From contig CANHQJ010000010.1 of assembly GCA_947462875.1 (NCBI GenBank), forward strand, positions 1 to 64,000: a stretch of DNA of 64,000 nt, read 5' to 3'. Source of the stretch: Verrucomicrobiia bacterium. GTDB taxonomy: Bacteria; Verrucomicrobiota; Verrucomicrobiia; Verrucomicrobiales; Akkermansiaceae. The position numbers were made by a program, and so were the translations under genes. A model generated the notes under the pieces. It saw nothing but the letters and a program-made list of their open reading frames with translations, was not told the origin of the DNA and made no database searches. Below, in pieces: positions 1 through 6,391 of this stretch; the stretch's first letter is position 1; each line of letters begins with the position of its first letter.

Positions 1-564
1 TAAGGTAGCCGAATCCACGATTGTTACTCTCCGCTCCTGATGGTGATAGCTCTCGGGGGCGAACACTCGCAATACTGCCACGGTTGCCGTTTGCTTTTTC
101 TGCGGCTCGCAAGGCGGCAAGTTCCCACATTCGCAGTTCGCTGATTGGTTGGGGATCGAATTGAGTGGAGAGGACATAACAATGAGAATCTAGCTCATCT
201 AAAGCAGGTCGTCGATGACAAAGGATTCTGGCTTTCAGTTTTTTGTAAAGTGCTGGCTACCATCACCAGACCTTACGAACAGAATCCTCTTTTTAACAAG
301 CGTCGCGCCTGCGCCCACGATACGGGACCACATAGCAGGCGACCCCGGACTGTCTTCGGTGCTGAACTGAACGATATCGACTTTTCTGCCTTATCCGGCT
401 TGCTTTCTTGCTGCTTCAACTCCGTTTTTTGCCCATTGTGGAGCGGTTGATTCATCGACGGCGAGATAGGTGCTTCCAAGGACATTGCGATGGGACTGTA
501 TAAGTTTGAAATTGTACTGTCGAGATGAAAGGTCTGGCCGAGCACACGATGTGAAATATGGCAG
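1..564. other. Left edge of the element, no confident gene
   Basis: No reading frame here looks convincingly coding. On the minus strand one frame stays open from about 255 to the window edge, with a Met at 130, and would begin MWELAALRAAEKANGNRGS. It could be the start of a gene truncated by the window. Another minus frame at 273-578 and a plus frame at 145-450 are open for about 100 codons each, but their composition is not protein-like. This may be non-coding or decayed element DNA. Confidence 0.4.
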
Positions 565-888
565 TCATTTTTGCCCATTTTCTGCTGAATCCAGCATTCG
601 CCGAAGAGCCGCTCTGGCGGTAGGGCTGTTTTTCACTCTCTCCAGGATGGCGGAGTCATTTTCTGACAGGTTCGCGGTGATGACCTCCTGACGTTCCACG
701 GGCCTGCCGTGCTTGTAGGCGAGTGCAAGAGTAGCGGCCTGCAACCGGGTCTTGTGATCGGGCTCCACGGTGCCGCTGCGGGTCGTCTGGGTAGCGGTCA
801 GTGCATCGCGAATGGCAATCGCGATCTGCTCGTCCGGGAGTTCCGTGGCGAGTGCTTCGGCGAGTGTGTTAGTGGGGGGCGGTTTCAT
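565..888 (-). CDS. 107-aa phage-type hypothetical protein
   Basis: The protein is acidic and helical. Its middle part (PDHKTRLQAATLALAYKHG, then RPVERQEV) resembles the small helical DNA-packaging or terminase small-subunit-like proteins of phages, but I cannot assign a family. The ATG at 886-888 was chosen because it overlaps the stop of the 58-aa ORF upstream by ATGA, suggesting translational coupling. The frame stays open to 1095, but that longer form would run through the well-formed 58-aa gene in another frame. It is the most distal gene of the primase transcript that I can define. Confidence 0.55.
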   Translation of the reverse strand: MKPPPTNTLAEALATELPDEQIAIAIRDALTATQTTRSGTVEPDHKTRLQAATLALAYKHGRPVERQEVITANLSENDSAILERVKNSPTARAALRRMLDSAENGQK

Positions 889-1061
889 TTTTTGCGGATG
901 ATTCGGGTTATGCGGCGGACGGGTTTTTCTACGAGGAATTCTGCGACGAGTTTTTCGCGGATGGCGGCCGGCAGTTCGCACAGAAACTCCGCAATGCGTT
1001 CCGGTGGGAATGCTTCGGCCAACGCGCGGGTGTATTTTTCGATCTGGTTTTCTTGTTTCAT
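885..1061 (-). CDS. 58-aa hypothetical protein of the element
   Basis: A short ORF with clearly protein-like composition, starting MKQENQIEKYTRALAEAF and ending in a basic tail (RRITRIIRKK). It is predicted almost entirely helical, with an acidic first half and a cationic C-terminus. The TGA overlaps the ATG of the following 107-aa gene, the sort of arrangement expected in a compact phage operon. No family recognised. It could be a small DNA-binding or regulatory protein, but nothing in the sequence proves this. Confidence 0.5.
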   Translation of the reverse strand: MKQENQIEKYTRALAEAFPPERIAEFLCELPAAIREKLVAEFLVEKPVRRITRIIRKK

Positions 1062-1091
1062 TTGGTTTCGGTGTTGTTGGATGAGTTTCCT

Positions 1092-1202
1092 TCATGGCAT
1101 CGAGCGTGTGATGGCTTCAAAGAGCATGAAGAGTAGAATGGCGATGATTGCGGCGGTGATGAAGTTGTTCATTGGTTCTGGTGGTGGTGATTGATTTTGC
1201 AT
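1092..1202 (-). CDS. 36-aa single-pass membrane peptide
   Basis: The ORF begins MQNQSPPPEPMNNFITAAI, continues with a hydrophobic stretch (AIIAILLFMLF, roughly residues 17-27) and ends EAITRSMP. The layout is a proline-rich N-terminus, one transmembrane helix and a short tail. It sits just downstream of the primase terminator, in line with the two small genes to its left. Such tiny membrane peptides are common in phages and satellites, but the function is unknown and the ORF could be fortuitous. Confidence 0.35.
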   Translation of the reverse strand: MQNQSPPPEPMNNFITAAIIAILLFMLFEAITRSMP

Positions 1203-1238
1203 GATTTTAAATTTGTGGATTTTTGATCTGATTTAATA

Positions 1239-1362
1239 GGGACAGGAACGGGACAAAAAGCGTCCCTCTATAGAGGGACGCATTGTCCCGTCCCGTTTCT
1301 AGTCAGGACATTTTTTAATTGTCCCAAACTTGTCCCGTTTGTCCCGTTTGGTTAATTGTCCA
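1239..1362. repeat. Cluster of TGTCCC/GGGACA repeats, possible replication iterons
   Basis: The hexamer TGTCCC or its complement occurs at 1239-1244, 1250-1255, 1284-1289, 1320-1325, 1331-1336 and 1340-1345, most often extended to TGTCCCGT. The first two copies are in one orientation and the rest in the other, on either side of the palindrome at 1260-1281. An AT-rich stretch (about 1204-1238) lies beside them. The cluster overlaps the 3' end of the primase-helicase gene, where phage-satellite origins with iterons are known to sit. Part of it encodes the C-terminal TGQTGQ of the primase, so coding repetition is an alternative. Confidence 0.5.
1255..1281 (-). terminator. Rho-independent terminator after the primase-helicase gene
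   Basis: Positions 1260-1281 form a perfect 22-bp palindrome with TATA at its centre. On the minus strand it is followed directly by five T residues (1259-1255). It lies 34 bases beyond the stop of the minus-strand primase gene. The structure fits an intrinsic terminator. A perfect palindrome among direct repeats could also be a protein-binding site. Confidence 0.7.
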
Positions 1363-3474
1363 AGTGCCACGTTTGTTTTTCTTCAATACGCCAAGGATTT
1401 CCGCGCGCTGCATCTGCTTCTTAATGGTCTCTGGTTTCGGTGGTGTTTTTGTCCCCTTTATGTCCCAAATGATTTTTGCGGCTTGCTCTGGTGATAAATC
1501 GGGACAAGCGCATGTTGTCCCGGTTTCATCCGTAGCAAGGTCAAAAATCTCACTCCATTTTTCCCGCTCCTTGGTCACCTTGGCGTTTTCTTTCGCCTGT
1601 CCCACAATCTGCGAGTAGATGCCAAGAGTTGCATGCATGCATTGCTGCTTGTCCCATGCAAAGCACAACCCATGCTGTTTAGGGATTGAGCCGTGGCGGT
1701 TATCGTTTCCATAGATTGTGGAAATGTCGGTGTTCGGGTCTTTATCAATGCGAAGATTGGCGTAGCCTTTCCTTGCAAGTTCACTCCCGAAGTGTCCGCG
1801 TGTTTTGCCTGTTTCAGTGCCAGGGTTTTCATGAATCACTACGATGATGCAGCAATTAAATTCCTGTGCAATCCTCATCATTTCAGCCACGACATCGCAT
1901 GCAATCTCGGTGCTGTTTACGTCCTTCACGAAGTCCGCGCCACCGTCTAACACGATGCAATCAATCTTGCCCTTTTCTGCGAGTTTTTTCACTTTCAAAC
2001 GCAATATGTCCATGCGTTCTCTCATGCTAAACTTTCCAATTGGGTAACTGTATAGACGCTCGATCTCTGCGATGCCTGAGCGTTTCCTTGCCCGTTCTAC
2101 GCAAGCGTGATGATCTGCGGGTGATTGCTCGGTGTCAAAGTGTAGAATTGCTCCTGTTGCTTCTCCAATCCAAGCAAAGCCTAGAGTGTCACCCTGTGCA
2201 TGACATGCGCCACGGATTGCAACACCAACGGCAGATGTCACCGTGCCAGTCTTGCCCGTCTTTACCTTCGAGCCGATCACGCTGAGATTTCCGCGCGCTC
2301 CTATTGGAATACCTAAGAACGTAAGACAAACCTCATCGGGTGGCGGTGGCTTATTCGGATCGTAGCGCACTTCTTCCAGTCGTTTCAGCAAGTCGGCTTC
2401 ATATTCTGCCTGTGTGAGCTGTGGTTTATTCGACTGATTATTTTCTGGAGTATGAATCAATTCAGTAAACTGTTTTTTTACATCGCTCTCGGTCGGTGAT
2501 GCCTTTGCAATCCAGTCGTTCGGGTCTTCGTAGCCTTCCGGCGCTTGGGAGTATGAAAACATGCAGTCAGCGGGTATGCTCGCCCTCACACTCTCCAACC
2601 ACTTCTGCGCGGGGGTCTTACCGTCCTTGCCCTTCTTTGCGTCCGGATCGTTCTGCACGATCGCTATGATGCGAGTGGTCTTGCTGATAAGCGATGAAAC
2701 GTCTGTGTTCGATGACGCTCCCCGCGTGACGATGTAGGCGTAATACGCATCATGCTCCCAATGCCGGAGCGCGGCCATCACTGCGAACGCATCCCACTGG
2801 CTTTCCAGAATGAACGTGGTGTTCGCCAGTTTCGGATCACCGATGATGAGCGCGCTATTGGTGCCGCCTTTCGGATCGTAATACCACGTATCTTTTTCGT
2901 GGTCTTTCACATGGCACCGCACGACTTCGCCGTCCTCATAGACGGGGAACGCAACGTGACCATTGTAAAGGCCGATGAGTTTCTTTTCCTTGAGATACTG
3001 AATCGCCCTCTGATCAATGCCGCGGTTGATCGCCACGGATTCGACATACTCGTCGGTGAAATTGTTGACTCGCGACTCCCACAAGGCCACGAATTTATTC
3101 GCTTTCTTCGGTTGCTTCGGTTCGGGTTTGGCTTCCACTTTCCCGTCCGCCATATCGTCAGACAGTCGGATGATGCGACCGTTTTTCACTCCCTTGGGTG
3201 CGTCGTCGATGACATGCCCGGTGATGAGCTCGGCGGCTTCCTTGAAAGAAACGGCCTTGATCGCCTGGACGAATGAGAAAATGTCTCCGCTCGCTCCGCA
3301 GCCAAAGCATTTGTAAATGCCAAGCTTCGGATTGACCTTGAAGCTGCCGGATTTTTCGTTGTGGAACGGGCAGCATGCGGTGTTGTTCTTGTCGAGATCG
3401 ATGAACCGCTTCACCACGGAAACGATGTCGTACTGCTCGCGGATTCGGTCGAGTTCTTGTTGTGGTATCTTCAT
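1315..3474 (-). CDS. CHC2 zinc-finger primase fused to RecA-like helicase (719 aa)
   Basis: Replication initiator of the element. The N-terminus is a DnaG/phage-type CHC2 zinc finger with ligands C35, H38, C56 and C59. A toprim-like region follows at about 215-325 (FILESQWDAFAVMAAL, then a span ending DPNDW). The C-terminal half is a RecA/RepA-type ATPase with Walker A at 401-409 (GSKVKTGKT) and Walker B ending in D510 (IDCIVLD). A sensor-like segment follows (IIVVIHENP). It should unwind and prime DNA at the element's own origin, as in P4 alpha-type or satellite Pri-Rep proteins. The ATG at 3474 overlaps the stop of the small gene upstream. It ends in a TGQTGQ repeat encoded by the iteron-like DNA. 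Confidence 0.85.
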   Translation of the reverse strand: MKIPQQELDRIREQYDIVSVVKRFIDLDKNNTACCPFHNEKSGSFKVNPKLGIYKCFGCGASGDIFSFVQAIKAVSFKEAAELITGHVIDDAPKGVKNGRIIRLSDDMADGKVEAKPEPKQPKKANKFVALWESRVNNFTDEYVESVAINRGIDQRAIQYLKEKKLIGLYNGHVAFPVYEDGEVVRCHVKDHEKDTWYYDPKGGTNSALIIGDPKLANTTFILESQWDAFAVMAALRHWEHDAYYAYIVTRGASSNTDVSSLISKTTRIIAIVQNDPDAKKGKDGKTPAQKWLESVRASIPADCMFSYSQAPEGYEDPNDWIAKASPTESDVKKQFTELIHTPENNQSNKPQLTQAEYEADLLKRLEEVRYDPNKPPPPDEVCLTFLGIPIGARGNLSVIGSKVKTGKTGTVTSAVGVAIRGACHAQGDTLGFAWIGEATGAILHFDTEQSPADHHACVERARKRSGIAEIERLYSYPIGKFSMRERMDILRLKVKKLAEKGKIDCIVLDGGADFVKDVNSTEIACDVVAEMMRIAQEFNCCIIVVIHENPGTETGKTRGHFGSELARKGYANLRIDKDPNTDISTIYGNDNRHGSIPKQHGLCFAWDKQQCMHATLGIYSQIVGQAKENAKVTKEREKWSEIFDLATDETGTTCACPDLSPEQAAKIIWDIKGTKTPPKPETIKKQMQRAEILGVLKKNKRGTWTINQTGQTGQVWDN

Positions 3475-3650
3475 CTCCCGACCTCCTCATCTTTATCGTT
3501 TGGGGTTGGTGAGTCGAACGTATGAAGCTGATGAGAGAGAGGAGCTTTTGTTTGCTCCTTCTCATCTCGCAAACGCTGTTCGGGGAATTCATGCTGGATA
3601 ATCCACTTGAGGCGACAAGTTTGCCGATCCTTGCAATGATGATGACTCAT
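3471..3650 (-). CDS. 59-aa hypothetical protein upstream of primase
   Basis: A small hydrophilic protein starting MSHHHCKDRQTCRLKW. Its N-terminal HHHC and a second Cys at position 11 could bind a metal. The start at 3650 is favoured by a near-perfect Shine-Dalgarno (AAGGAGGT on the minus strand, 3657-3664) about seven bases upstream, one of the clearest in the window. The TGA overlaps the primase ATG by four bases. The frame is open further up to 3749, giving a 92-aa alternative that lacks such a ribosome-binding site. Function unknown. Confidence 0.55.
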   Translation of the reverse strand: MSHHHCKDRQTCRLKWIIQHEFPEQRLRDEKEQTKAPLSHQLHTFDSPTPNDKDEEVGR

Positions 3651-3811
3651 AGCAGCACCTCCTTCGTCATGGAAGCCGTTCCTTGATGTGCTTGTTTCGC
3701 CTTTCAAGTAGTTGATGAGGCTAACTCGTTGTGAAATGAATGTTTTCATGCGCTAACATTTTAGTTGTAAGCCGCCTGAATGGATGTAGACTTTGGGCAG
3801 ATGAAAGCTTG

Positions 3812-3840
3812 CGAGTCCGATCCAGTTCTGGGTCGGCTCG
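3812..3840. other. Imperfect inverted repeat between HTH and primase transcription units
   Basis: The arms CGAG-CCGA-CCAG and CTGG-TCGG-CTCG pair around a two-base loop with two interruptions. A T-rich run follows on the plus strand. It sits just beyond the 3' end of the minus-strand HTH gene. It could be a terminator or an operator; no plus-strand gene feeds into it, so an operator is at least as likely. Confidence 0.35.
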
Positions 3841-3846
3841 TTTGTT

Positions 3847-4071
3847 TTAGACGGGGTCGATGGGGTTAATTTTGAAACGGCGATCTAAGGAAGCACGCAC
3901 GGCTTCTGGCTCGCAGAAAACCCTTTTTCCCACCTTTAAAATCGGGAAAAATTTTCTGGCTCTCCATTCCGCCCAGGTGCGCTTTGATGGCGCTGATGGA
4001 CCTGTCCCGAATAGTATTTCTCGGCACTCATCGAGGCCGACGTATCGTTGTTGTTGCAGTTGGTTACTCAT
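3847..4071 (-). CDS. AlpA/excisionase-type helix-turn-helix protein (74 aa)
   Basis: A small winged-HTH DNA-binding protein of the MerR-like/HTH_17 type. The segment from RTWAEWRARKFFPILKVGKR to VFCEPEAVRASL is the classic layout of AlpA, Xis and phage excisionases: recognition helix, then a wing, then a tail helix. The start ATG at 4071 was chosen over an upstream TTG (4080). It lies between the primase operon and the integrase, where such proteins control excision or switch on element transcription. Whether it acts as excisionase, activator or both cannot be read from the sequence. Confidence 0.75.
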   Translation of the reverse strand: MSNQLQQQRYVGLDECREILFGTGPSAPSKRTWAEWRARKFFPILKVGKRVFCEPEAVRASLDRRFKINPIDPV

Positions 4072-4146
4072 AACGAGCAAACAAATGCATAATACCTAAA
4101 ATAAATACGTGGGTCTCAAGTATTAGACTTGTCCCCTATGTATTTT

Positions 4147-4962
4147 TCACTTCCTACTTTTTCCTCTTCCTCCGGCGGGTAGCCAACTAAAACACAAGCG
4201 CTCCATAAGCGAGTCAAACGTAGATTCTGCAATGAGTTGTGGGTTTGGAACTGCATTTTCAAAGATGCTCCTTACGGCCTTTTTCGTCGGCACCCCACCA
4301 GCGGTTTGAGCAGCGATTTCAACAGATTTGAAAAAAATTTTGTAACGATCATCGACAGGGAGAGATTCAATATGAGCAATCTTGTTAATCCACGTACCTA
4401 GCCGAATCAAGAAATCCCCAGCTCCGTCATCTTGTATTTTCACAATCAACCATTCGCCGATATGCTTTTCAAATCTGCTCTCGTCTTTGGATATTTCCTC
4501 CCAAAATTTTAAGTTCGCTTCGGATATAGCTTTACCTGTGGTCTCTTCTAATTCGTTGGACAGTCGCCTGATTGCAAGCATTCGCCAGTGAGATGCTATC
4601 GCGGCATCACTAATGTCATGTTTCTTAAAGCGTTGCCGTAGCGCCATAAGTAAAAGAAGCTCGCCCTTGGGAATATGCAATTCATCAACTGGCGAATCGC
4701 TAGAATTCTTGCAGCCACCCTTTGCCAAATGAGGAAAGTGTAATTTCAAGTCATTCAGCAAAGCATGATATTTTCGAGTTTTTTTGTCGAATAATAAGAA
4801 ACCAGATGTTGCGTCATTCTTTTCGTGTGCGATCCAGAATTCAGGAGTTTCAGAACGAACATACTTCGTTTTATCAGCTTTGACCGATAAAGCATCTGGC
4901 GTTTTTTCTGGCTTAGCAATTGGCTTCTTGGCTGCCGTTTTTTTTGCTGGTCTTTTCATCAT
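4147..4962 (-). CDS. 271-aa protein of unknown function, possible cargo
   Basis: No family recognised. The N-terminus is a Lys/Ala/Pro-rich basic tail (MMKRPAKKTAAKKPIAKPEK), like a histone H1 tail. A mixed alpha/beta section follows (GFLLFDKKTRKYHALLNDL), then a mostly helical acidic body to the end. There is no signal peptide or membrane segment, so it should be cytoplasmic. The DNA is visibly richer in A and T than the chromosomal genes to the right, suggesting separate acquisition. It sits between integrase and HTH gene, a position where satellites and prophages often carry accessory genes, including anti-phage genes. That role is inference only. Confidence 0.65.
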   Translation of the reverse strand: MMKRPAKKTAAKKPIAKPEKTPDALSVKADKTKYVRSETPEFWIAHEKNDATSGFLLFDKKTRKYHALLNDLKLHFPHLAKGGCKNSSDSPVDELHIPKGELLLLMALRQRFKKHDISDAAIASHWRMLAIRRLSNELEETTGKAISEANLKFWEEISKDESRFEKHIGEWLIVKIQDDGAGDFLIRLGTWINKIAHIESLPVDDRYKIFFKSVEIAAQTAGGVPTKKAVRSIFENAVPNPQLIAESTFDSLMERLCFSWLPAGGRGKSRK

Positions 4963-4989
4963 GTCTATTTGGTCAGTGGTGTAAACTGC

Positions 4990-6255
4990 TTAGATGACTT
5001 TGAGCTTTTGTTTCTGAGGCATCACTTTTTTGATCACTGCGTGGCCCTTCGCCGTCCGAGGGTACACAGAGAAAAACTTCGCCCCGTCTTCCCGCGTATG
5101 TAGGTTCAGGTAGTGGCGTTTGACGATCGTTTCGGAGTTGCCGGCCTGCAATGCGGCGTCCCCTACGGACCGGTGCAAGGCGACGTGGTAGCTGATGAAG
5201 CTGTGGCGCATTTCATCGTGCTTGAGCTTATGGTCCATGCGGATCTTGGCGATCCTCCTTTTGTAGTTCGTTGGCAAGATCGGCTTGCAGTAGGCCTGTA
5301 GCCATGCCGCGAGGTTGGGGGGAATCTCCACCTGCCGCTGTTGACGCGTTTTTGATATGCCTGCCGGAATCGTGATGACGTTGGTATCCAGATTGATGAG
5401 CTGTTTCTCTCTATCGTTCATGCGCTGTGCTTCCTCTGGGCGGATCCCGGCAAAGTAGCAGAGCGCGAAATAGGGGATCAATTCGCCCCCATCTGCCATG
5501 AGGCTGGTGAAAAGCGATAGCACTTTTTCAGGACTGGACGTAGTGGGGTGCAGTGCTTGCTCTTCCCTCACGATCTTGTTTTTGTGACGAATCACCTGCT
5601 CCACCGGATTGATGAAGCAGTAGGGCCGCTTGGTAGCCAGGTCTTTTTCCATGCACCATTTGAAGAACGCATGCAGCTCGTCCCGGTAGTTGTTCCATGT
5701 CTTGCGGGAAATCTTCTCAGACTCACCGACACGAATCGACTTGAGAAACAGGGTGATCTGTTCGCTCGTGATGGTATGCACGTCGGCGTTGTTCGCGGCA
5801 TCGGCGAATCGCTTCAGCGAGCGTTTCAGAGCATTGATGGTCCGATCCCTGAGCAGGCTCTCTTTATCCTCGATGTAGCGTGAGATCGCATTGGTGAGGG
5901 CAATGGTGTAGTCTGGAGCGCGATGGTTCACCAAGAAGTATTTCACGGCCTCGGTGAGGGAGTAGATACCGAGAGCCTCATAAGCCCGGCATGCTTCGTC
6001 GTGCTTTTCCTGAGTGAGGGAGGAAAGGATCATGTGCTGCTGCCGGCCCGCATTCTCCATGGAGATGCGTTTCATCGATGCGAACGTTTTGGCTTTCGTC
6101 TCATCCGAGAAGAACTTGCGCTGCCATTTCCCGTTTTCTTGCCAACCTTGAACGAGGTGAGTGAGATAGCCATTGCGCATCACCTGCCGAATGGTAATTT
6201 CAGATGCTGACGTTTTTGGGGCGATTGTGCGCGTGCGTTTCGTCGTCTTGCTCAT
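4990..6255 (-). CDS. int: Tyrosine recombinase (integrase), 421 aa
   Basis: Catalyses site-specific integration and excision of the element. The arm-binding and core-binding region covers about residues 20-230, with a SAM-like helical section at 110-200. The catalytic domain shows R272 (AGIRPEE), K302 (SKTRQQR), the second box DEMRHSF with R350 and H351, and the nucleophile Y382 (KRHYLN). The position usually holding His before the second Arg is Asp347, a variant common among phage integrases. The gene starts about 95 bases from the tRNA fragment at the right boundary, the standard layout for an element that carries its own integrase next to the attachment site. A repeat-rich leader separates the two. 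Confidence 0.92.
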   Translation of the reverse strand: MSKTTKRTRTIAPKTSASEITIRQVMRNGYLTHLVQGWQENGKWQRKFFSDETKAKTFASMKRISMENAGRQQHMILSSLTQEKHDEACRAYEALGIYSLTEAVKYFLVNHRAPDYTIALTNAISRYIEDKESLLRDRTINALKRSLKRFADAANNADVHTITSEQITLFLKSIRVGESEKISRKTWNNYRDELHAFFKWCMEKDLATKRPYCFINPVEQVIRHKNKIVREEQALHPTTSSPEKVLSLFTSLMADGGELIPYFALCYFAGIRPEEAQRMNDREKQLINLDTNVITIPAGISKTRQQRQVEIPPNLAAWLQAYCKPILPTNYKRRIAKIRMDHKLKHDEMRHSFISYHVALHRSVGDAALQAGNSETIVKRHYLNLHTREDGAKFFSVYPRTAKGHAVIKKVMPQKQKLKVI

Positions 6256-6257
6256 GT

Positions 6258-6317
6258 GTGCATCCTAGTGCATCTCTCCGACTCTGGCAACAACTATTGC
6301 ACTGTTTGTTGCACTGT
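6258..6317. repeat. Short direct repeats between integrase and attachment site
   Basis: Two direct repeat pairs lie here. GTGCATC is at 6258-6264 and 6268-6274, spaced 10 bases (one helical turn). TTGCACTGT is at 6297-6305 and 6309-6317, spaced 12 bases. Lambda-type integrases and excisionases bind short arm-type repeats beside the crossover site, so these are good candidates for Int or Xis binding. They could also be an operator for the integrase gene. Confidence 0.45.
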
Positions 6318-6349
6318 ATTTTTTTTCCCTTTATTTATGTGGTTTGTTT

Positions 6350-6377
6350 GCAGGTTCGAAACCTGCACCGCGCACCA
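6350..6377 (+). other. tRNA 3'-end fragment, right attachment site (attR)
   Basis: The sequence holds a complete T arm (GCAGGTTCGAAACCTGC, 6350-6366), the 3' half of an acceptor stem (ACCGCGC, 6367-6373), a discriminator A and CCA (6375-6377). The DNA just before it is AT-rich and does not resemble the rest of a tRNA, so the gene is cut at this point. This is the scar left when an element integrates into a tRNA 3' end. The intact tRNA, whose 5' strand should begin GCGCGGT, should lie at the left end of the element outside the window. The anticodon cannot be inferred. Confidence 0.8.
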
Positions 6378-6391
6378 TGTTTTTCTGCCAT

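What the first reader, a model, noticed from the sequence alone, without database searches (positions are those of the whole stretch)
1..6377. Phage-satellite-like element in a verrucomicrobial chromosome
The order integrase, accessory gene, AlpA-like HTH, primase-helicase with candidate iterons, ending at a tRNA 3' end, matches the backbone of Gram-negative phage-inducible chromosomal islands. Such satellites are described mainly in Proteobacteria and Firmicutes; I know of no characterised case in Verrucomicrobiota. If the part left of the window lacks its own structural genes, this would be a phage parasite of a new host phylum.
Basis: partly seen in the sequence, partly recalled or inferred. 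Interest (0 to 1): 0.7.

Follow-up and report, generated by a model that had tools for sequence, protein, structure and literature searches.

The report
Probable phage satellite in verrucomicrobial tRNA-Val
This stretch is one end of a mobile DNA element that sits in a tRNA gene, copies itself from its own replication origin, carries an anti-virus cargo and probably travels in the particles of a helper virus, a lifestyle not yet described for this bacterial phylum.

Summary
Window 1-6377 is the right end of an integrated element that is cut by the contig start. Its left end lies on contig C4, behind an intact tRNA-Val(GAC). Both ends share a 29-bp core repeat and identical paired integrase-type sites. 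A congeneric genome has the empty site, purB-tRNA-Val-GSDH. At least 15.1 kb is known; the middle is unsequenced.
From attR inward, all on one strand, lie: tyrosine integrase, conserved unknown, Xis/AlpA-like protein, primase-helicase, an origin (opposed GGGACA iterons around an AT-core palindrome) and a small protein. Homologues of the small protein directly precede the large terminase in two verrucomicrobial prophages, but lack it in four similar islands. The C4 half carries a PLD-helicase, a type IIG-like methylase and an AAA ATPase, and no structural genes.
Other genomes of the class hold similar backbones in complete 6.4-13.3 kb tRNA-bounded islands; some carry TerS, tape-measure or lone capsid genes. 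A PICI-like phage satellite is the best reading (about 0.7). Membership in PICI or P4 is not shown: the AlpA and primase profiles differ, and induction, packaging and helper are untested. The unsequenced middle is the main caveat.

The parts
6350..6378 (+). attR core: 29-bp copy of the 3' end of tRNA-Val(GAC); the partner attL is inside the intact tRNA gene at C4:231193-231267
   Evidence: empty site in G379 joins purB, tRNA-Val and GSDH
6297..6316 (+). paired arm-type integrase sites TTGCACTG-N4-TTGCACTG; the same pair lies inside the other end (L012 9396-9415), with an inverted copy at L012 9362
   Evidence: one pair in the 64-kb window, one in L012, none in 202 kb of other sequence
4990..6255 (-). 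tyrosine recombinase (integrase), 421 aa
   Evidence: PF13495 4e-6, phrog_1 4e-17; recombinase-like IRPEE, RHSF and HYL segments
4147..4962 (-). 271-aa protein of unknown function; a gene of similar size sits at this place (int - X - AlpA-like) in several related elements
   Evidence: no family match; position conserved in L265, L269, L270, L271
3847..4080 (-). 77-aa winged-HTH, excisionase/AlpA-like regulator
   Evidence: HTH_17 E 0.12 only; AF2 model pLDDT 76, top Foldseek hit mycobacteriophage Pukovnik Xis 4j2n, rmsd 1.8, weak E
1315..3474 (-). primase-helicase, 719 aa: CHC2 zinc ribbon plus RecA-like helicase half
   Evidence: PF01807 7e-26; helicase half 43-46% identical to proteins of same-family genomes
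1239..1523 (.). probable replication origin: opposed GGGACA iterons around the palindrome GCGTCCCTCTATAGAGGGACGC (1260-1281)
565..888 (-). 107-aa terminase-small-subunit-like protein
   Evidence: homologues 50-70 bp upstream of TerL in prophages L268 and L272 and on the TerL side in L267; same family without TerL in L265, L269, L270, L271
1..560 (-). unassigned, apparently decayed coding remnant at the contig edge
   Evidence: broken frames; no match in phages, PHROGs or TerL searches

Best explanation
The window end is one half of a phage-satellite-like integrative element. Shown by sequence: it is inserted in the 3' end of tRNA-Val(GAC) between purB and GSDH, with core and arm-type sites at both ends. 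It has its own integrase, an Xis/AlpA-like protein, and a primase-helicase followed by an iteron origin with an AT-core palindrome, all transcribed inward from int. Next comes a TerS-like gene with no TerL in the 560 bp before the contig end. An anti-phage-type module (PLD-SNF2 helicase plus type IIG-like methylase, beside an AAA ATPase) sits behind attL. Inferred: when a suitable phage infects or is induced, the Xis/AlpA-like protein and integrase excise the element. Primase-helicase then replicates it from the iterons. Its own TerS steers the helper's TerL to pack the satellite DNA into helper particles. Between such events the defence cargo protects the host against other phages.
For: Element limits. 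GC is 0.50-0.53 inside against 0.57-0.58 outside. Origin: 10 iteron hexamers in 331 bp. Eight related elements, this one included, have their own iteron word at the 3' end of the primase-helicase gene, beside an AT-core palindrome 33-87 bp after the stop codon. The word changes at nearly all places together (GGGACA in two, GGGAAA in two others) while spacing is kept. PMC6092414 gives two iteron sets flanking an AT-rich region 3' of pri-rep as the PICI origin layout. TerS-like gene next to TerL in prophages and alone in islands. Related complete islands: 10.9 kb in tRNA-Ala with a lone capsid gene, 10.1 kb in tRNA-Glu with a lone capsid gene, 13.3 kb in tRNA-Thr with a tape-measure gene, 7.6 kb in tRNA-Leu with TerS, 6.4 kb in tRNA-Arg with HNH nuclease. 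Defence cargo.
Against: The part between C4:239994 and C10:1 is not assembled, and no examined contig end continues the methylase. The TerS assignment rests on synteny; no TerS profile matches the protein and its single-sequence model is poor. No helper phage with the matching TerL was found in ten genomes of the genus. The HTH and primase do not belong to the defining P4/PICMI profile families. The 560 bp beyond the TerS-like gene look decayed, so the element may be damaged. Excision, packaging and transfer are not shown.
Confidence: 0.7

Rival explanations
1. It is a prophage or prophage remnant whose structural genes lie in the unassembled middle; the TerS-like gene is then simply the start of a normal packaging module.
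For: The TerS-like family occurs in real prophages just upstream of TerL. The middle is unsequenced and the region after the TerS-like gene is decayed.
Against: TerL follows within 50-70 bp in prophages L268 and L272, but no TerL lies in the 560 bp available here. No TerL of that type was found in the whole assembly; the clear TerL hit in the genome is in a Mu-like prophage on C3. The opposite end carries defence genes, not lysis or tail genes.
Confidence: 0.15
2. It is an integrative and mobilizable element or integrated replicon that spreads by conjugation or by unknown means and carries a restriction-type defence cargo, with no phage dependence.
For: Integrase, Xis, primase-helicase and an iteron origin are also compatible with plasmid-like integrated replicons. 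A large part of the known DNA is defence cargo.
Against: No relaxase or conjugation gene among the proteins scanned in either half. Sister islands carry TerS, capsid, tape-measure or HNH genes, pointing to phage particles.
Confidence: 0.12
3. The two contig ends belong to two different elements that both used tRNA-Val(GAC), in tandem or in different strains of the binned population.
For: The junction is not assembled, and tRNA sites often take tandem elements (general knowledge).
Against: Both ends carry the same paired TTGCACTG arm-type sites with identical 4-bp spacing, found nowhere else searched, and flank the same empty site.
Confidence: 0.05

Closest known systems
Gram-negative PICIs (e.g. 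EcCICFT073; PMC6092414)
   Same: att-bounded island near 15 kb; integrase, AlpA-type regulator and fused primase-replication protein in one direction; iterons on both sides of an AT-rich site right after the replication gene; optional terS; accessory phage-resistance genes
   Different: HTH does not match Phage_AlpA; replication protein is CHC2 plus a RecA-like helicase; large restriction-type cargo; no named helper; host of another phylum; middle unknown
P4-like satellites (PMC8628076)
   Same: integrase, small HTH, primase-helicase, defence hotspot, integrated in the chromosome
   Different: no psu, sid, delta or epsilon seen in the known part; alpha-type primase profile not matched; has a TerS-like gene
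PICMI (PMC10803314)
   Same: minimal set of integrase, HTH_17-type AlpA and primase; anti-phage cargo
   Different: PICMIs sit at fis, use DUF3987/DUF5906 primases and have no identifiable packaging gene; this one is in tRNA-Val and larger
cf-PICI (capsid-forming PICI; described in PMC10803314)
   Same: sister islands L052 and L295 carry a capsid gene
   Different: those islands have a lone capsid gene with no portal or TerL seen, and this element shows no capsid gene in its known part
PLD-SNF2 helicase with type IIG-like restriction-methylase modules (PADLOC HKD+Snf2 C3a139; REase_MTase_IIG)
   Same: domain content of the cargo proteins
   Different: no PADLOC system definition was tested; methylase C-terminus missing; pairing with the AAA ATPase is by neighbourhood only

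Membership tests
Gram-negative PICI | Specific att site with integrase | tested here: met
   29-bp core in tRNA-Val, empty site in G379
Gram-negative PICI | att site never used by prophages | not tested
   too few tRNA-Val sites of the genus were read to tell
Gram-negative PICI | AlpA/MerR-type regulator | tested here: inconclusive
   HTH_17 E 0.12, no Phage_AlpA hit; Xis-like fold, weak E
Gram-negative PICI | Primase-replication gene followed at its 3' side by an origin with two iteron sets flanking an AT-rich site | tested here: met
Gram-negative PICI | Unidirectional transcription from int inward | tested here: met
   all five main genes of the C10 half on the minus strand; the cargo half has its own directions
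[quoted passage not shown]
   none in the 15.1 kb known; middle unsequenced
Gram-negative PICI | Size 12-15 kb | tested here: inconclusive
   at least 15.1 kb plus an unknown gap
Gram-negative PICI | Phage-dependent induction and packaging | not testable with these tools
   needs culture or virion reads
P4-like satellite | psu, sid, delta, epsilon, alpha (PF03288) and Phage_AlpA (PF05930) components | tested here: not met
   none among the Pfam hits of the known part; definition from PMC8628076
PICMI | integration next to fis with a DUF3987/DUF5906 primase | tested here: not met
   tRNA-Val site, CHC2 primase; definition
cf-PICI | own capsid-forming genes | tested here: inconclusive
   none in the known part; gap open
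Integrative and mobilizable element | relaxase or oriT | tested here: inconclusive
   no relaxase family among the proteins scanned; oriT not searched; gap open
Complete prophage | TerL, portal, capsid and tail genes | tested here: inconclusive
   none in the known part; no TerS-associated type of TerL in the assembly; gap open

The most novel reading that the evidence does not exclude
The class of this genome hosts its own family of phage satellites. It is built on a primase joined or adjacent to a RecA-like helicase, with a diagnostic origin in which element-specific iterons face an AT-core palindrome and change together from element to element. Members hijack helpers by different single packaging or virion genes (TerS, HNH nuclease, tape measure, or a lone capsid protein without protease) and carry restriction-type defences.
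Probability: 0.5. Interest if true: 0.78.

Novelty: new variant of a known kind. Interest (0 to 1): 0.6.

Why it matters
Characterised satellites come mostly from Proteobacteria and Firmicutes, with marine cyanobacterial and actinobacterial types added recently (PMC10803314, PMC11389934). I found no paper in the held open-access library that describes one in Verrucomicrobiota. A satellite family there would give a route for gene and defence transfer in a group with gut and aquatic members. It might bear on why Verrucomicrobia contigs were 3.5 times over-represented among contigs with transduction patterns in a mouse gut study (PMC7667829). The origin signature and the lone packaging genes give search handles for finding more.

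Tried and rejected
The end of C4 overlaps no other contig, profile PDLC03596 finds no further methylase piece, and the contig starts plus part of the contig ends showed no obvious continuation. The far ends of most large contigs (C1, C2, C5-C8, C11-C21, C24-C28) were not read. Scans of viral and genome contigs with the primase protein mostly returned the shared CHC2 zinc ribbon of DnaG. The integrase has no close relative in IMG/VR. The remnant at window 1-560 matched nothing. A PDB sequence search with the primase-helicase alignment gave only ABC transporters near threshold. Folding the TerS-like protein alone was poor (pLDDT 52), so no fold search was made with it; its relatives came from genome stretches outside the fold tool's stated list and were not sent. 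I first took the 89-aa HTH behind attL for the TerS; its weak hits to TerS and repressor families fit any small HTH and it is not used as evidence.
Full report
WHAT IS THERE. The window is bases 1-64000 of contig C10 of a 39-contig, 3.95-Mb assembly, and base 1 of the window is base 1 of the contig. The finding therefore describes an element cut by an assembly break. On the minus strand, going inward from position 6377, lie a tyrosine integrase (4990-6255), a 271-aa unknown (4147-4962), a 77-aa HTH (3847-4080), a 719-aa primase-helicase (1315-3474) and a 107-aa protein (565-888), followed by a decayed 560-bp remnant.

THE TWO ENDS. The tRNA remnant at 6350-6378 has one other exact copy in the genome, inside an intact tRNA-Val(GAC) at C4:231193-231267, 8.7 kb before the end of contig C4. 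Left of that tRNA is purB; right of the window remnant is a GSDH gene. In genome G379 of the same genus, purB, tRNA-Val(GAC) and GSDH are adjacent, so the C4 end and the C10 start are the two sides of one insertion. The shared core is 29 bp. Each end also carries the pair TTGCACTG-N4-TTGCACTG (window 6297-6316; L012 9396-9415), which occurs nowhere else in the window, in the rest of L012, or in 202 kb of other sequence checked. This is what arm-type integrase sites of a single element look like. GC is 0.50 and 0.53 in the two halves against 0.57-0.58 in the flanks.

THE LEFT HALF. Behind attL on C4 are an 89-aa HTH, a 106-aa unknown, a 374-aa AAA ATPase, an 1118-aa PLD-SNF2 helicase and a type IIG-like methylase of at least 949 aa that runs off the contig. 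PADLOC profiles match the last two strongly (HKD+Snf2 3e-46; REase_MTase_IIG 7e-119, reaching profile position 943 of 1148). No structural, lysis, relaxase or conjugation gene was found in either half. Known length is 15.1 kb plus an unassembled middle of unknown size. Reading the contig starts and part of the contig ends did not close it.

THE ORIGIN. At the 3' side of the primase-helicase are 10 GGGACA/TGTCCC in 331 bp; no 331-bp stretch of the window outside the element has more than one, and none of 2000 shuffles reaches ten. They lead up to a palindrome with an AT core, GCGTCCCTCTATAGAGGGACGC (1260-1281), with opposed copies beyond it. Seven homologous elements have the same plan with their own word: GGGACA (L045), AGGGAAA (L046), GGGAAA (L047), ACCGCCA (L052), CACCTCA (L051), ACCCCGA (L054), GGGATCA (L055); in L047 no opposed copy was found beyond the palindrome. 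The iteron word is significant against dinucleotide shuffles in this element and six others (0 of 200); in L046 it is not significant on its own. In the four closest elements the iteron spacing is nearly the same, relative to the stop codon, although the word differs. A palindrome of this type was found by the formal scan in eight elements (window, L045, L047, L051, L052, L054, L055, L059) at 35-87 bp after the stop, against 0-5 of 200 shuffles per region; L046 has a related one. It was absent from L048 and L049 and from eight further islands tested that were not in the helicase alignment. PMC6092414 describes two iteron sets flanking an AT-rich region right after pri-rep as the origin layout of all PICIs it studied, and says no other known bacterial replicon shares it.

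THE TERMINASE-LIKE GENE. The 107-aa protein matches no family. Nine other genomes of 384 in the class have homologues. In prophages L268 and L272 the homologue lies 50-70 bp upstream of TerL, and in L267 on the same side as TerL with other genes between (TerL by phrog_24361 and phrog_2). In L265, L269, L270 and L271 it lies in islands with integrase, unknown and AlpA-like genes and a primase, helicase or other ATPase gene before it, and with no TerL of that type in the sequence read (only about 1.4 kb follows it in L270). This element has the second arrangement. Calling it TerS is an inference from position. PMC6092414 lists terS as an optional PICI gene that directs packaging.

RELATED ISLANDS. 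Matches to the primase-helicase that go beyond the DnaG zinc ribbon occur in about 20 of 383 other genomes of the class. Four of these give complete tRNA-bounded islands: L052 (tRNA-Ala, 10.9 kb), L055 (tRNA-Thr, 13.3 kb), L051 (tRNA-Leu, 7.6 kb) and L061 (tRNA-Arg, 6.4 kb); a fifth, L295 (tRNA-Glu, 10.1 kb), was found through its capsid gene. L052 and L295 carry a single HK97-type capsid gene of about 360-380 aa, and no TerL or portal homologue was detected with the queries used. In several phage contigs and in G172 the relatives are 700-760-aa proteins with an extra N-terminal part, read as a protease fusion. The same lone gene is in L296 and in IMG/VR contig L250. L055 carries a tape-measure gene (phrog_9483 3e-25), L045 and L051 a TerS (phrog_57 4e-16 and 9e-5), L061 an HNH nuclease. 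L053, L063 and L265 carry restriction- or helicase-type cargo. Single packaging or virion genes beside an integrase and primase are what satellites, rather than conjugative elements, carry.

MECHANISM. Most likely: helper infection or induction turns on the Xis/AlpA-like gene; integrase excises a circle; primase-helicase replicates it at the iterons; the element's TerS recruits helper TerL to pack element DNA; particles deliver it to a new tRNA-Val; the restriction-type cargo protects the host. The sequence shows the parts; every dynamic step is inferred. No TerL of the matching type was found in ten genomes of the genus. The own genome does hold a Mu-like prophage on C3 whose TerL is of another type; whether either kind could help is unknown.

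COMPARISON AND VERDICT. It works like a PICI. As family membership, att site, origin layout and transcription direction are met; regulator family, size and lack of structural genes are inconclusive; induction and packaging are untestable here. P4-like and PICMI definitions are not met. The held open-access literature gave no verrucomicrobial satellite, but subscription papers and preprints are not in it.

Noticed in passing
L052:8282-9424, L295:10685-11758, L296:1170-2273, L250:3873-5018: Lone HK97-type capsid genes (about 360-380 aa, without the extra N-terminal part seen in phage relatives) beside integrases, two of them inside complete tRNA-bounded islands of 10-11 kb; a possible new satellite type.
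   Followed up: partly
L298 (G000:C3:150000-169900): Mu-like prophage with TerL, portal-like, protease-like and head genes in the same genome; a candidate helper or competitor.
   Followed up: partly
L080:1-4852 (G000:C29 start): A second integrase plus AlpA-like gene at a contig start, probably another element of this kind cut by the assembly.
   Followed up: no
L081:100-2960 (G000:C23 start): Two divergent integrase genes at a contig start.
   Followed up: no
L051:5670-13245, L061:6550-12970: Small islands flanked by repeats of the 5' half of tRNA-Leu or tRNA-Arg (38 and 43 bp), so integration is in the anticodon region rather than the 3' end.
   Followed up: partly
L056:12016-13146: AAA ATPase 76% identical to the one in the C4 half, beside a primase-helicase of another genome; suggests shared cargo among such islands.
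   Followed up: no
L045:3047-3937: TIR-like protein, by eye, near a primase-helicase and TerS gene: possible defence cargo.
   Followed up: no
L070 (G000:C39): 3.2-kb contig with RecN-like and FabI-like genes that looks foreign to this genome (by eye only); possible binning contamination.
   Followed up: no
L266:9734-9978 (G263, same genus): Frameshifted copy of the TerS-like gene near a type I HsdM-like gene: perhaps a decayed relative of this element in another species of the genus.
   Followed up: no
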